DNA from: Rhodocyclaceae bacterium
Lineage (GTDB): Bacteria; Pseudomonadota; Gammaproteobacteria; Burkholderiales; Rhodocyclaceae
NCBI GenBank assembly: GCA_013791905.1
Contig: VMSX01000029.1
Coordinates: forward strand, 62,001 to 126,000
DNA length: 64,000 nucleotides
Direction of reading: 5' to 3'
The notes under the pieces were generated by a model. It was given only the letters and a program-made list of their open reading frames with translations. It ran no database searches and was not told where the DNA came from. Positions 13,661-61,014 of this stretch are shown one piece after another. Numbering within the stretch: the first letter of the stretch is position 1; every line of letters starts with the position of its first letter. The position numbers were made by a program, and so were the translations under genes.

Positions 13661-13765
13661 CCCCCAGCCCCCTTCCTGGGGAAGAGGGTGATGGGGGTTC
13701 GCGGGCGGTGCCCGCTCCATGTTTGGCCGTTCCTCCTTGGGACGGCCCGGCGGAGGAACACGGCA
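13661..13765. repeat. Hairpin repeat element, copy A (flgI-flgJ gap)
   Basis: After the flgI stop come a C-rich tract (CCCCCCAGCCCCC), a pyrimidine/purine hairpin, and an inverted repeat GTTCCTCC/GGAGGAAC (13729-13736 and 13752-13759). The inverted repeat encloses TTGGGACGGCCCGGC, the reverse complement of the family loop. The family lies in at least seven intergenic sites of the window. Confidence 0.8.
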
Positions 13766-21475: not shown

Positions 21476-21625
21476 CAGCCTTGCCGCCGGGCCGCCCCAA
21501 GGCAAGGCGGCACGCGCCGCCAGGCGCAATCCGCTCGATTGTTATTCCGGAGTCGCCCGTAATAAACGAGCGCAGCGAGTCAACAGTCACCCCCTTCCTC
21601 AGGAAGGGGGCTGGGGGGAAAGGGC
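21476..21625. repeat. Hairpin repeat element, copy B (fliN-fliO gap), best-preserved
   Basis: Stem GCCTTGCC/GGCAAGGC (21478-21485, 21501-21508) encloses the 15-nt loop GCCGGGCCGCCCCAA. A middle segment with CGAGCGCAGCGAGTCAACAG follows. A second hairpin CCCCCTTCC/GGAAGGGGG (21590-21598, 21602-21610) and a G-tract end directly at the fliN stop codon. In the fliN mRNA the order is therefore stop, C-rich tract, hairpin II, hairpin I. Confidence 0.85.
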
Positions 21626-24960: not shown

Positions 24961-25118
24961 CCGCCCCTCCCAGCCTCCCCTCGCGGGGAGGTGACTGTGG
25001 TTCGCTACGCTCGTCTGTTACGGGTCGCCATGCTCGGATTACGGCACGGATTGCGCCTTGCGGCGTGTACCACCTTGCCTTGGGGCGGCCCGGCGGCAAG
25101 GCTGAGTCGTCATCCGAT
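24961..25118. repeat. Hairpin repeat element, copy C (fliJ-fliK gap)
   Basis: Stem CCTTGCC/GGCAAGG (25073-25079, 25095-25101) encloses TTGGGGCGGCCCGGC, the loop in reverse complement. A second hairpin CCTCCCC/GGGGAGG lies near 24975. Relative to fliJ this copy is inverted compared with copies A, B, D, E and G. Confidence 0.8.
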
Positions 25119-33281: not shown

Positions 33282-33434
33282 CCAGCAGCAGTCTCGCCGC
33301 CGGGCCGCCCCAAGGCGAGACGACACGCGGCGCCAGCCGCAATTCCTACCCCAGCAACTACAACGCTCCCCGTAACAGACGCGCGTAGCGCGTCAACAGT
33401 CACCTCCCCGCGAGGGGAGGCTGGGAGGGGCGGG
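33282..33434. repeat. Hairpin repeat element, copy D (fliE-ycgR gap)
   Basis: Stem GTCTCGCC/GGCGAGAC (33291-33298, 33314-33321) encloses the identical loop GCCGGGCCGCCCCAA. The middle GACGCGCGTAGCGCGTCAAC is followed by hairpin CCTCCCC/GGGGAGG (33403-33409, 33414-33420). The G-tract ends about 9 nt from the ycgR stop codon. Confidence 0.85.
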
Positions 33435-36186: not shown

Positions 36187-36342
36187 AGCGTTTGCGCCGG
36201 GCCGCCTTATTGGCCAAATGAGGCAAACGCGACATGCGGCGCAAGCCGCAAACCGCTCCACCCCCAAACGCCGCACCCCGTGATATTCGAGCGCCAGCGA
36301 GCCGTTCGGAACCCCCGAGAGGGGGGCGAAGGGGGCGGGCCA
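36187..36342. repeat. Hairpin repeat element, copy E (diverged)
   Basis: CGTTTGC/GCAAACG (36189-36195, 36223-36229) enclose GCCGGGCCGCC plus inserted sequence instead of the usual 15-nt loop. The middle GAGCGCCAGCGAGC and a CCCCC/GGGGG hairpin with G-tract end 1-2 nt from the fliT stop codon. This stem differs from all other copies yet still pairs. Confidence 0.7.
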
Positions 36343-47601: not shown

Positions 47602-49680
<2,079 letters not shown>

Positions 49681-49786
49681 TGCCTCCGCCGGGCCACCCC
49701 AAGGAGGCTCAACCAAAACTTGGAGCGGGCCTTACCCGCGAACACCCGTCACCCCCTTCCCCCGGAAGGGGGTTGGGGGGATGGAG
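49681..49786. repeat. Hairpin repeat element, copy F (TRAP-DUF1850 gap)
   Basis: Stem GCCTCC/GGAGGC (49682-49687, 49703-49708) encloses GCCGGGCCACCCCAA, the loop with one substitution. Hairpin CCCCCTTCC/GGAAGGGGG (49752-49760, 49764-49772) is followed by TTGGGGGGATGGAGG. Immediately 3' of a short repeat copy, and inverted relative to the stop codon when compared with copies A, B, D, E and G. Confidence 0.82.
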
Positions 49787-49796
49787 GTCTTGATTC

Positions 49797-50207: not shown

Positions 50208-50256
50208 ACGTTTATCAGCACAAGGCTGATCGACCGGAAGGCGGCTCCATTACCAC

Positions 50257-50958
50257 ATGTACTACGGCGAAAAATTCAACGCGGTGACGCATCTCATCGG
50301 CGCCATTCTGGCGTTCGCCGGCGCGATATTGCTCGTTGTGCTGTCAGCGCTGGACGGCGATCCGTGGAAGGTGCTGAGCGTCTCGATCTACGGCGCGACG
50401 CTGGTGCTGCTGTACAGCGCCTCCACGCTCTATCACAGCCTGCGCGGGCGCGCCAAGGATATCCTGCGCAAGTTCGATCACCACAGTATCTATCTGCTCA
50501 TCGCCGGCAGTTACACGCCGTTCTGCCTGGTGACGCTGCGCGGCCCCTGGGGCTGGTCGTTGTTCTGCGTGGTGTGGGGGCTCGCCGTGCTGGGCATCCT
50601 TCAGGAGATGATTCCGGCCCGCAATAGTCGCTCTGCAGAGTTCTCCACCCAGGAGGCCAAGCAACACTTGGGGCGGCCCGGCATGTTGCTTGATCGCCTA
50701 AGGGGCGAAGCACGCATCTTGTCGGTGGCGATCTATGTGGTGATGGGCTGGGTGGCCTTGGTGGCCATCGTTCCGCTGCTCGATAAGCTAGGGTTCGCCG
50801 GCTTTGCCTGGCTTGCGGCGGGCGGTTTGTTTTATACGATTGGCATCATCTTCTTCGCGCTCGATACCCGTCTGCGCCACGCGCATGGCATCTGGCACCT
50901 GTTCGTCATCGCCGGCAGCGCCGCGCACTTCATTGCGATCCTGTATTACGTGCTGTAA
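50257..50958 (+). CDS. Hemolysin III family membrane protein
   Basis: A 233-residue PAQR-like membrane protein with about seven helices. Signature residues are MYYGEKFNAVTHLIGAILA, STLYHSLRGRAKDILRKFDHHSIYLLIAGSYTPF and HGIWHLFVIAGSAAHF. The His/Asp residues resemble a zinc site of the alkaline ceramidase/PAQR fold. The natural role is uncertain; family members are named hemolysin III from one early report. The gene stands alone. Confidence 0.85.
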   Translation: MYYGEKFNAVTHLIGAILAFAGAILLVVLSALDGDPWKVLSVSIYGATLVLLYSASTLYHSLRGRAKDILRKFDHHSIYLLIAGSYTPFCLVTLRGPWGWSLFCVVWGLAVLGILQEMIPARNSRSAEFSTQEAKQHLGRPGMLLDRLRGEARILSVAIYVVMGWVALVAIVPLLDKLGFAGFAWLAAGGLFYTIGIIFFALDTRLRHAHGIWHLFVIAGSAAHFIAILYYVL

Positions 50959-58159: not shown

Positions 58160-58981
58160 TTACAGCCGCCAGATCAGGCTGGCCATGCGACCGGTGACGA
58201 TCTCGCGCCGGTAGGAAAAAAAGCGTTGGCTGTCGCGTACCGTGCAAAAGTCGGCGCCGGGCCGCCCCAAGCCGACGTCAGCCCCCCGTGGGGGCAGCGA
58301 GCCGGAGTTGCGAGCGTGGGGGCCAATAAACTCGGCGCTGGTGATACGGCGTATGTTCAATGCAGCGAGCCGCTGTCGCGCAAGTAAATAGATGTTGCAC
58401 AGCCATTTGCCATTTGGCTTGGCGACAAACGCTTCTGCTGCCTGCTGATCATGCGCGATGAATGCCGCGCGCACCTCGTCGCCGACCTCGAAGTTTTCTG
58501 GACCGATCGCCGGCCCGAGCCAGGCCATGAGCCGTTCTCCCGGCTGCTCCAGTGCGGCCACCGTGGACTCGATCACGCCGCCCGCCAGCCCGCGCCAGCC
58601 GGCATGCGCGGCGGCGACCGCGCTGCCGTCCTCGTCGCAGAGCAACACGGGCAGGCAGTCTGCGGTAAGCACGGCGCAGACCACGCCGGGCGCACGGCTG
58701 AACGCGGCGTCCGCCTCAGTTTCCACTCCGATTTCGGCAAGTTGCGCGTCGATGCATTTGTTGCCATGCACCTGCTTGAGCCAGACCGGTTCGGCGGGCA
58801 GGTGCTGGCGCAGCCGGCCGCGGTTTGCCGCGACTGCCTCAGGCGTGTCGCCGACGTGGTCGCCGAGGTTGAAGCTCGCGTAGGGCGCGCTGCTGACGCC
58901 GCCCAGCCGGGTTGTTACCAGCGCTCGGACATTCGGTGGCGCCGCCCAGTCGGGAATGATGAAGCCGGCGAATTCATTCAC
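58160..58981 (-). CDS. pgeF: PgeF/YfiH, peptidoglycan/purine-nucleoside metal enzyme with a repeat insertion
   Basis: A multicopper-oxidase-like fold protein (laccase domain) that acts on nucleosides or peptidoglycan fragments. The metal-site residues are present in LKQVHGN, LTADCLPVLLC and AAHAGWRGLAGG. The C-terminal CTVRDSQRFFSYRREIVTGRMASLIW is family-typical. Residues ~214-245 (SAEFIGPHARNSGSLPPRG and on) are extra compared with E. coli and are encoded by repeats (58246-58351). The start is a GTG at 58981 overlapping rluD by 8 nt. Confidence 0.88.
   Translation of the reverse strand: MNEFAGFIIPDWAAPPNVRALVTTRLGGVSSAPYASFNLGDHVGDTPEAVAANRGRLRQHLPAEPVWLKQVHGNKCIDAQLAEIGVETEADAAFSRAPGVVCAVLTADCLPVLLCDEDGSAVAAAHAGWRGLAGGVIESTVAALEQPGERLMAWLGPAIGPENFEVGDEVRAAFIAHDQQAAEAFVAKPNGKWLCNIYLLARQRLAALNIRRITSAEFIGPHARNSGSLPPRGADVGLGRPGADFCTVRDSQRFFSYRREIVTGRMASLIWRL
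58246..58351. repeat. Repeat insertion inside pgeF (hairpin loop module flanked by short repeats)
   Basis: Stem GTCGGC/GCCGAC (58250-58255, 58271-58276) encloses GCCGGGCCGCCCCAA, the exact family loop. The left part AAAAGTCGGCGC equals the start of the short repeat, and a second short-repeat-like run (58328-58351) lies at the other end in the same orientation. The whole segment is read in frame. Confidence 0.8.
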
Positions 58982-59924
58982 CGCGCAAGGCTTCCAGCAA
59001 GGCCGCGAAATCAGCTGGTGGGGCCGTTTCCCAGGCCATGTCCGCGCCCGAATCCGGATGGACCAGCGCCAGCCGCCAGGCGTGCAAGGCCTGCCGTGGG
59101 AAGGCGTCGAGTGTTGCATCGCCACTCTTGCCCTTGCAGTAGGTCGTATCGCCGACCAGCGGGTGGCCAATGCTCGCCATGTGCACGCGGATCTGATGCG
59201 TGCGGCCGGTTTCGAGCCGGCACTCGAGCAGCGTGCAGCGCGCGAAGCGTTCTTTCACCGCATAGTGAGTGCGTGCTTCCTTGCCGCCATGCTTCAGCAC
59301 AGCCATCTTGGTACGCTGCGCCGGATGGCGGCCGAGCGGGGCATCGACCGTCCCGGAAGATGAGACCTTGCCGCGCGCCAGCGCGAGATAGTGGCGCTTG
59401 ACGGTGCGCGCCTGCAACTGGCGCACCAGAGCGGTTTGCGCCGTCAGGGTCTTGGCGACCACCAGCAGGCCGGAAGTCTCCTTGTCGAGCCGATGCACGA
59501 TGCCGGCACGCGGAATGCCGGCCAGCGCCGGCACATGATGGAGCAGCGCGTTCATCAGGGTGCCGGAGGCGTTGCCGTTGCCCGGATGCATCACCAGGCC
59601 GGCCGGCTTGTCGATGACAATCAGGGCGTCGTCCTCATACACGATGGGCAGCGCGATGTCCTCTGCTGCGTTGGCAAAAGTCGGCGCTGGCGGGACGGTG
59701 ATGCGAATGCGCTCACCCCCCCATACCTTGCGCTTGGGGTCGGCCAGGTTGCCATCGAGCGTGATCAGGCCCTCGCGCAACCAGTTCTGCAGGCGGCTGC
59801 GCGAATGCTCGGGCAATTGCCGGGCCAACGCGGCATCCAGCCGCATGCCGGAACAATCGGGCGGAACCGTGAATTCCGTTGGGGAGATATAATCGGGCGA
59901 CTTTATTTGGGGTTCGTTCATCAT
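58974..59924 (-). CDS. rluD: RluD-type 23S rRNA pseudouridine synthase
   Basis: RluD makes pseudouridines in 23S rRNA helix 69. The protein (316 residues) has an N-terminal S4-like segment (MRLDAALARQLPEHSRSRLQNWL) and the catalytic motif GIVHRLDKETSGLLVV. It starts at the ATG pair 59924/59921, which abuts the divergent bamD start. The residues PPAPTFANA in a linker come from a short dispersed repeat (59676-59699). Its C-terminus overlaps pgeF by 8 nt. Confidence 0.92.
   Translation of the reverse strand: MMNEPQIKSPDYISPTEFTVPPDCSGMRLDAALARQLPEHSRSRLQNWLREGLITLDGNLADPKRKVWGGERIRITVPPAPTFANAAEDIALPIVYEDDALIVIDKPAGLVMHPGNGNASGTLMNALLHHVPALAGIPRAGIVHRLDKETSGLLVVAKTLTAQTALVRQLQARTVKRHYLALARGKVSSSGTVDAPLGRHPAQRTKMAVLKHGGKEARTHYAVKERFARCTLLECRLETGRTHQIRVHMASIGHPLVGDTTYCKGKSGDATLDAFPRQALHAWRLALVHPDSGADMAWETAPPADFAALLEALRGE
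59676..59699. repeat. Short dispersed repeat inside rluD
   Basis: AAAAGTCGGCGCTGGCGGG followed by ACGGT, in frame on the minus strand as VPPAPTF. Confidence 0.75.
59888..59893 (+). promoter_or_regulatory. Candidate sigma-70 -10 (TATAAT) of bamD
   Basis: A perfect TATAAT lies 29 nt before the bamD start codon, inside the rluD coding sequence. A -35 is weak. GGGGTTCG before the start may serve as the ribosome site. Confidence 0.45.
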
Positions 59925-60717: not shown

Positions 60718-60721
60718 AAAT

Positions 60722-60985
60722 TTCGCCCGCCCCCCTTCGCCCCCCTCGCGGGGGGTTCTAAACGGCTCGCTGCGCTCGCTTATTACGGGGTGCAACTATT
60801 AGCAGCGGAGCGGATTGCGGCTGGCGCCGCGTGCCGTCTCGCCTTGGGACGGCCCGGCGGCGAGACTGCTGTGGTGTGGGCTGAGGTGGTGCAGGTTTTC
60901 TCCCCTTTCCCTTGGCGGGAAAGGGGCCGGGGGAAAGGGGGAGCCACCAGAAAGCCCTTTTCCCGCAAGGCGGGATAAGGGCGGC
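60722..60985. repeat. Hairpin repeat element, copy G (bamD-rlmB gap)
   Basis: C-rich tract and CCCCCC/GGGGGG hairpin begin about 8 nt after the bamD stop codon. GAGCGCAGCGAGC-like sequence follows (as CGCTGCGCTCGC). Stem GTCTCGCC/GGCGAGAC (60836-60843, 60859-60866) encloses TTGGGACGGCCCGGC. A further CCCCTTTCCC/GGGAAAGGGG hairpin lies near 60902-60940. No gene is seen in the 297 nt between bamD and rlmB. Confidence 0.82.
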
Positions 60986-61014
60986 CCGGCGCAAACGCTG
61001 CGGTGTCTTTCACG

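What the first reader, a model, noticed from the sequence alone, without database searches (positions are those of the whole stretch)
21476..21625. Dispersed repeat with an invariant 15-nt loop and a covarying stem
At least seven intergenic copies (13661-13765, 21476-21625, 24961-25118, 33282-33434, 36187-36342, 49681-49786, 60722-60985) and one intragenic copy (58246) share the loop GCCGGGCC[G/A][C/T]CCCAA. The stem around it is different in sequence but still fully complementary: GTTCCTCC/GGAGGAAC, GCCTTGCC/GGCAAGGC, CCTTGCC/GGCAAGG, GTCTCGCC/GGCGAGAC (twice), GCCTCC/GGAGGC, GTCGGC/GCCGAC. Conserved loop with compensatory stem changes is the hallmark of a selected hairpin, in RNA or single-stranded DNA, or of a mechanism that rewrites one arm from the other. 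I do not recognise the family by name. This is direct observation; the functional reading is inference.
Basis: partly seen in the sequence, partly recalled or inferred. Interest (0 to 1): 0.86.

Follow-up and report, generated by a model that had tools for sequence, protein, structure and literature searches.

The report
Mobile DNA hairpins with interchangeable stems
The repeated hairpins belong to a large family of tiny mobile DNA elements, spread through many betaproteobacteria and sometimes inserted in frame inside genes, whose 15-base loop hardly changes while the 8-pair stem differs but still matches in copy after copy.

Summary
Eight exact loops lie in the window and 196 in the genome (reversed control 0). 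In 94 own-genome copies, stem pairs 1-8 are Watson-Crick in 80-92 of 94 and pair 9 in 27; dealing right arms among copies gives 31-45 for pairs 2-8. Two corrections: the 36187 copy lacks the exact loop, and an exact copy inside a HlyIII-family gene was missed.

They are not RNAs conserved in place. They are mobile palindromic elements of about 80-290 bp with at least four bodies, missing at sharp empty sites in same-genus genomes; some lie in frame inside genes. In a 398-genome survey all 14 genomes with 2 or more copies belong to the window's order. Orthologous stems that differ are mostly uncompensated, and stem type is unlinked to body ancestry. So pairing seems set when a copy is made, and stems are exchanged or rewritten between copies. 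At a few sites the stem is target sequence (58256, L355), but not in general.

I infer mobilisation by an unidentified hairpin-reading enzyme; RAYT genes do not track copy number. New variant of a known kind.

The parts
13729..13759 (-). B-type element: hairpin GTTCCTCC-GCCGGGCCGTCCCAA-GGAGGAAC (loop 13737-13751)
   Evidence: B-type body follows
21478..21508 (+). A-type element: hairpin GCCTTGCC-GCCGGGCCGCCCCAA-GGCAAGGC (loop 21486-21500)
25072..25102 (-). A-type element: hairpin GCCTTGCC-loop-GGCAAGGT (loop 25080-25094; pair 8 is G-T)
33291..33321 (+). A-type element: hairpin GTCTCGCC-loop-GGCGAGAC (loop 33299-33313)
49681..49795 (+). B-type insertion, 115 bp, absent in G015 (TAA joined to CATG there) and G009, present in G008; hairpin GCCTCC-loop-GGAGGC, loop 49688-49702
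50610..50700 (-). C-like insertion of about 91 bp in frame in a HlyIII-family gene (ORF 50230-50955, +); loop 50668-50682; absent in G008, G009, G015
58247..58341 (+). D-type insertion (81 bp) in frame in a PgeF/Cu-oxidase_4 gene (ORF 58163-59254, -), with the two copies of its target (58247-58260, 58328-58341); left arm AAGTCGGC is native in 7 of 8 aligned empty genomes (AACTCGGC in G016); right arm GCCGAC (58271-58276) is inside the insert
60718..61002 (-). A-type insertion of about 285 bp, absent in G003 and G011 (G016 has other sequence there); exact loop 60844-60858, variant loop 60976-60990
36188..36230 (+). Variant copy: GCGTTTGC, then GCCGGGCCGCC joined to another short hairpin, then GCAAACGC; no exact loop

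Best explanation
A family of short non-autonomous mobile palindromic elements, like REP, MITE and Rickettsia palindromic elements. Each has at its left end a hairpin with a fixed 15-nt loop and a stem of about 8 bp (10 in type C) of free sequence, followed by one of at least four bodies (A about 270 bp, B about 115 bp, C and D about 80-90 bp) with further hairpins. SHOWN: dispersed repeats, sharp insertions at empty sites, in-frame insertions in genes, covariation among copies, mostly uncompensated differences between orthologues, and stem type independent of body ancestry in type A. INFERRED: while mobile, the element folds as single-stranded DNA (less likely RNA); the loop is read by an unidentified hairpin-specific nuclease or transposase; the stem only has to pair. 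Copies with broken stems drop out of the mobile pool, and stems are swapped by recombination between copies or rewritten from one arm. After insertion most copies decay.
For: 196 own copies, 240 in G008, 0 in 5 of 18 same-genus genomes (G001, G003, G006, G011, G016). Empty counterparts in G008/G009/G010/G015 for 23 of 26 panel sites and for four window sites. Of 9 ORFs given to Pfam, the element lies within the family match in 4 (HlyIII, Cu-oxidase_4, NAD_synthase, DabA), just before the best of two stretches in 1 (PGI), in the N-terminal coding part in 3 (ValRS-like, TsaE, MoaC), and before or at the start in 1 (Mur ligase, L078). Short direct repeats at ends: CATCA at L067, ATTCAT at L114; an 8-bp overlap at L355 with two empty genomes. 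Stem pairing stops sharply after pair 8 in G000 (80, then 27 of 94) and in f49 genomes (55, then 22 of 86), and after pair 10 in the C-type contigs (85, then 14 of 122). In pairs 2-8 of the own copies only 22 of 658 cells are G-T. Stems unlinked to bodies.
Against: No enzyme identified: PF01797 (RAYT/IS200) occurs in 10 of 23 genomes with 5 or more motif copies and in 54 of the other 98, and no motif with 3 or fewer mismatches flanks the rayt genes in L203 or L204. No terminal inverted repeats seen. The direct-repeat test shows no excess for types A (0 of 63), B (1 of 31) and C (4 of 98), only for D. The A-type body tree has only 7 strongly supported branches. In f49 genomes only 26 of 86 copies have all 8 pairs. 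At 58256 and L355 the left arm is native target sequence, and at L013 and L016 part of it is, which a simple 'both arms are carried' model does not explain.
Confidence: 0.72

Rival explanations
1. A cis-acting structured RNA (attenuator, processing or decay signal) kept by selection at each place; the stem covaries because the RNA helix is needed.
For: Strong covariation with an invariant loop; many copies lie in intergenic or operon positions, some leaving a GGAGG before a start codon (L021, L027; by eye).
Against: Of 12 orthologous rows whose stems differ, 10 show no compensated pair. Copies are polymorphic between relatives and sit in frame inside genes. No Rfam family at gathering score in the window; the best weak hit at 58200-58360 is 20.4 bits against a threshold of 70.
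Confidence: 0.1
2. Guide-directed insertion: the right arm pairs with the target DNA and the stem is the guide-target duplex, as the guide and cleavage sites of IS200/IS605 elements are recalled to do over about 4 nt.
For: At 58256 7 of 8 aligned empty genomes carry CAAAAGTCGGCGC and the insert carries GCCGAC. At L355 the empty genomes G507 and G512 carry TTTTTCAT once, the filled site has TTTTTCAT at both ends and ATGAAAAA as right arm. The same right arm GATGAAAAAG occurs at another locus in G511 (L432). The arm GCCGACGTC recurs at L010, L246 and L249, each beside AAAGTCGGCGC or AAACTCGGCGC.
Against: Over 23 sites with empty counterparts the right arm is no more complementary to the empty site than arms of other sites (mean 5.48 against 5.46 of 9). 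At L067, L114 and L095 the left arm lies inside the insert. C-type arms are nearly constant whatever the target (that set was fetched by its arms).
Confidence: 0.12
3. Fold-back synthesis: on or after insertion one arm is copied from the other (or from the target next to it) by template switching around the loop, so any 8-nt neighbour becomes a perfect stem.
For: Stem independent of body; the stem equals target and duplicated target at L355; compensated C-G to T-A between G000 and G008 at L071 (by eye); several one-off stems in G450 and G475 (a partial list).
Against: Most orthologous stems that differ are not re-paired, so rewriting in place is rare at this divergence. Arm types recur (GCCTTGCC 11 and GTCTCGCC 9 of 55 fully paired own copies), unlike random neighbours.
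Confidence: 0.2
4. Ordinary MITE of a known insertion sequence with terminal inverted repeats.
For: Short, numerous, non-coding, with direct repeats at some ends.
Against: The canonical C ends (CTCTCAAG ... GGGGGCGCTC) and D ends are not inverted repeats of each other (by inspection). No parent element seen, though none was searched for systematically.
Confidence: 0.12

Closest known systems
REP elements and RAYT transposases (IS200/IS605-like), as in Nunvar et al. 2010, PMC2817692 (passages read)
   Same: GC-rich palindromes at more than 100 copies per genome, able to form stem-loops. The second hairpin of type B (GGAGCGGGC..GCCCGCGAAC) resembles the P. putida REP TGTGGGAGCGGGCnTGCCCGCGAA in that paper's table.
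   Different: No GT(A/G)G head seen before the first hairpin; invariant 15-nt loop with a free stem; copy number does not track RAYT presence; in-frame insertions in genes.
Rickettsia palindromic elements (RPE), as described in the MITE review PMC10969869 (passages read)
   Same: Several families of short palindromes, found inside genes in frame as well as between genes.
   Different: Another bacterial group, no sequence link tested; an invariant loop with an interchangeable stem is not mentioned in the passages read.
MITEs in general (PMC10969869, passages read)
   Same: Non-autonomous, numerous, short, with direct repeats at some sites.
   Different: No terminal inverted repeats seen; GC-rich; no parent insertion sequence seen.
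Hairpin-displayed nick sites of rolling-circle replicons (recalled, no call)
   Same: Conserved loop sequence with a stem that varies but stays complementary.
   Different: A functional analogy only; no replication gene or nick site shown here.

Membership tests
[quoted passage not shown]
   By inspection, first hairpins are preceded by arm and flank without a recurrent such head
REP/RAYT | RAYT gene in the genome, with REPs beside it | tested here: not met
   PF01797 in 10 of 23 motif-rich genomes against 54 of 98 others (some genomes incomplete); no motif with 3 or fewer mismatches in the two rayt loci read, L203 and L204
Rickettsia palindromic elements | In-frame insertion within protein genes | tested here: met
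   Of 9 ORFs given to Pfam, 4 with the element within the match, 1 just before the best of two stretches, 3 in N-terminal coding parts, 1 before or at the start; other copies were not given to Pfam
Rickettsia palindromic elements | Sequence kinship with RPE families | not tested
   RPE sequences were not fetched
MITE | Terminal inverted repeats | tested here: not met
   C and D ends compared by eye
MITE | Target site duplication | tested here: inconclusive
   8 bp at L355, CATCA at L067, ATTCAT at L114; 12 of 41 D-type copies share 7 nt or more against 7.9% in control (a few of the 12 look like chance), but A 0 of 63, B 1 of 31, C 4 of 98 are at control level; 41 of 274 copies, followed by another copy, were left out
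IS200/IS605-type guide and target pairing | Element guide complementary to the flanking target (recalled) | tested here: not met
   23 sites: 5.48 against 5.46 matches of 9; best exceptions L355 (8), 58256 (7) and L114 (7)
Rfam structured RNA | Match at gathering score | tested here: not met
   Only two tRNAs in the window; no credible hit at E up to 10 in 58200-58360

The most novel reading that the evidence does not exclude
A natural family of 80-bp transposons in which the arm behind a fixed 15-nt loop acts as a sequence guide: it pairs with about 8 nt of target DNA, insertion duplicates those 8 bp, and the guide is exchanged or rewritten from the new target, so the element retargets itself. 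L355 (three copies of the target: two direct, one inverted) and 58256 would be fresh examples, and the many carried-arm copies would be moves of already programmed elements.
Probability: 0.12. Interest if true: 0.92.

Novelty: new variant of a known kind. Interest (0 to 1): 0.64.

Why it matters
The family is large (196 copies here; 2 or more in 11 of 11 sampled genomes of another family of the order). I found it neither in Rfam (window at gathering score; one copy at E up to 10) nor in print by exact strings in the held open library. It shows strong stem covariation that does not mean a conserved RNA, which is a warning for covariation-based RNA discovery: paralogous mobile copies give the signal without function in place. 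In-frame insertions in PGI, NadE and PgeF genes make it a possible natural source of new protein segments. How stems are swapped while staying paired is directly testable.

Tried and rejected
RAYT as the driver: no association. Stem as a general copy of the target: rejected as a rule, kept for 58256 and L355; L029 carries the target once in the empty genome G009 and on both sides when filled, but its own right arm in G000 has decayed and scores at chance. Known RNA family: no Rfam match. Mobile carriers: no phage record and one record in the plasmid collection (Burkholderia arboris, 3.5 Mb) with one C-type query; 3 and 1 viral contigs with two patterns. Exact-string paper searches: 0 papers; topic searches listed REP, REPIN, RPE and MITE papers, none recognisably this family, and one search listed nothing (listings only, except passages of PMC2817692 and PMC10969869). 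The orthologue search for 45 A-type copies in G008 and G015 was mostly uninformative: 40 G008 stretches were fetched, A-rich intergenic regions differ, and the BLAST step returned nothing because of my options, so only sites with alignable left flanks were used. insertion lengths are approximate at the edges (L071 reads 82 there, while its open frame implies a multiple of 3). Not done for lack of caps or time: empty sites for G120 and G475 copies, a genome-wide intragenic count, a search for a full-length parent, a covariance model.

Full report
What was checked. The loop GCCGGGCCRYCCCAA is present 8 times exactly in the window, with 13 matches at up to 2 mismatches against 1.72 expected from shuffles. 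The own genome G000 (3.64 Mb, 30 contigs) holds 196 copies and none of the reversed control.

Covariation. I took 94 distinct own-genome copies; one search listed only the first 100 of 196 places, so the rest were not read. Pairs 1-8 are Watson-Crick in 92, 87, 86, 90, 86, 85, 82 and 80 of 94. Dealing right-hand letters anew gives 88, 43, 33, 34, 36, 32, 31 and 45. Pair 9 falls to 27 (18 expected); pairs 10-14 are 41 (41), 41 (31), 23 (19), 20 (19) and 17 (22). Sliding the right arm by -2, -1, +1, +2 or +3 leaves 156-200 of 564 cells for pairs 3-8, against 509. In 86 copies from genomes of a second family (f49) the cut-off is also after pair 8 (55, then 22), though only 26 of 86 have all eight pairs. 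In 122 copies from named contigs, mostly C type and fetched by their arms, it lies after pair 10 (85, then 14). Of the 94 own copies 55 are fully paired, with 24 different stems (all).

Anatomy. Behind the right arm come four main bodies: A (GGCACGCGGCGCCAGCCGCAAYCCGC..., about 270 bp), B (GCCAAACATGGAGCGGGC..GCCCGCGAAC..., about 115 bp), C (GGCCCCYTGRGGGGAGAACGCCGCGCAGCGGCGTTTTCGGGGGGGC, about 80-90 bp) and D (CCCCCCGTGGGGGGCAGCGAGCCGGGTTTGCGAGCGTGGGGGGCC, about 80 bp). A rough sorting of the 94 by pattern gave A 46, B 17, C 16, D 15. Inner hairpins of C and D seem to vary in the same manner (by eye, not tested).

Mobility. Same-genus genomes range from 0 to 240 exact copies. Alignments show sharp empty sites. 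At 49681-49795, G015 joins TAA to CATG where the window has 115 bp; at 60718-61002, G003 and G011 lack about 285 bp and G016 has other sequence; in the HlyIII-family gene three genomes lack about 91 bp; at 58256 eight aligned genomes lack the insert, and G009 and G015 share it. A panel of 26 further own-genome sites against G008, G009, G010 and G015 gave empty counterparts with measurable insert length at 23. Some inserts lie at overlapping stop and start codons and leave a GGAGG in front of the start codon (L021, L027; by eye).

Insertions inside genes. I gave nine ORFs to Pfam. In four the element lies within the family match: Cu-oxidase_4 (window 58163-59254, -), HlyIII (window 50230-50955, +), NAD_synthase (L065), DabA (L029). 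In PGI (L002) it lies just before the best of two stretches. In three it lies in the N-terminal coding part: a class I tRNA synthetase with a valyl-type start (L071; the name is from reading), TsaE (L069) and MoaC (L074, right behind the start codon). In a Mur ligase (L078) it lies before or at the start. The frames are open through the element. The other copies were not given to Pfam.

In place or on the move. Where an orthologous copy could be aligned by its left flank (21 rows, 19 sites), arms were identical in 9 and different in 12. Of the 12, 10 show no compensated pair; 1 (L027 against G015) has a new paired stem at a site that is empty in G008 and G009, so it may be an independent insertion; 1 (L005) was replaced by another module. 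Fourteen rows were dropped for unalignable left flanks; one of them, L071 against G008, shows a compensated change by eye. So pairing is not generally maintained where the copy sits. On a tree of 45 A-type bodies (110 bp behind the stem) the right-arm type, in four classes, shows 22 changes against a shuffled mean of 22.5, as low in 98 of 200. Only 7 branches are strong, but these alone force at least 5 changes for GCCTTGCC and 4 for GTCTCGCC. Stems therefore move between bodies, or are rewritten.

Stem and target. At 58256, 7 of 8 aligned empty genomes carry CAAAAGTCGGCGC (G016 has CAAAACTCGGCGC), so the left arm there is native, the right arm GCCGAC is new and the target is repeated at the right end. 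L355 in G450 is the cleanest case: G507 and G512 are empty with one TTTTTCAT, and the filled site has TTTTTCAT on both sides plus ATGAAAAA as right arm; the BLAST pieces overlap by exactly 8 bases in both. The same right arm sits at another locus in G511 (L432). At L013 and L016 the empty sites hold part of the left arm. But over 23 sites the right arm does not match the empty site better than arms of other sites do (5.48 against 5.46 of 9), and at L067, L114 and L095 the left arm lies inside the insert. Target-derived stems are thus exceptions that any full mechanism must explain.

Distribution. In 398 genomes drawn across the phylum, 2 or more copies occur in 14, all in the window's own order; these include all 11 sampled genomes of family f49, and outside the order the counts are 0 or 1. 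A C-type 27-mer hits 92 stretches (80 shown with titles) in records named Rhodocyclaceae, Burkholderiaceae, Thiomonas, Thiobacillaceae, Hydrogenophilales, Tepidicella xavieri, Sulfuritalea, Sulfurisoma and others; records labelled Gammaproteobacteria also carry several copies, so the family may reach beyond the order.

Mechanism. I hold that the hairpin is the recognition structure of a small mobile DNA: the loop is read, the stem only has to pair. Selection for mobility keeps pairs perfect in the mobile pool, and exchange between the many copies or fold-back copying makes new stems. The enzyme is unknown. RAYT/IS200 genes do not follow copy number (10 of 23 against 54 of 98). The steps from 'the loop is read' onward are inference.

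Known or new. It works most like REP, RPE and MITE elements, but fails the REP head, RAYT and terminal-repeat tests (see the membership table). Exact strings gave no paper in the held library and Rfam no family for the window. I call it a new variant of a known kind.

Noticed in passing
window 49660-49680; flanks in L003, L069, L070, L093, L097: Another dispersed motif, about AAAAGTCGGCGCTGGCGRKACGGCG, is seen at several loci of the genus, also at sites without the hairpin element; D-type elements with GTCGGC arms sit in it (58256, L029, L246, L249). Seen by eye, not counted.
   Followed up: partly
L089, L111, L194, L208: A second palindromic element (GACAAGGCCGYAGGCCGCAGGACAGCCGAAGGCTGGTYCCGC..GCGGRATGCGGCTTTGCCGCACACAA) is inserted inside copies of the hairpin element.
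   Followed up: no
L343, L344, L345, L346, L348 (f49 genomes): Tandem arrays of D-type units with periods of about 80-84 bp; six units in L343.
   Followed up: partly
window 13661-13735 and other B bodies: The second hairpin of type B (GGAGCGGGC..GCCCGCGAAC) resembles the Pseudomonas putida REP sequence in PMC2817692 and also varies in stem (GGAAGCCGC..GCGGCTGAAC in L016).
   Followed up: partly
window 36196, 60976-60990; L306, L315, L337: Composite copies in which the loop is cut after GCCGGGCCGCC or GCCGGGCCGCCC and joined to another hairpin module (TTCTCCCGCAAGCGGGTGAAGGGC and similar), as if modules recombine inside the loop.
   Followed up: no
L339, L340, L341 and L219: Three IMG/VR contigs and Tepidicella xavieri carry a C-type element beside closely similar flanking sequence, so the element also occurs on virus-labelled contigs.
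   Followed up: no
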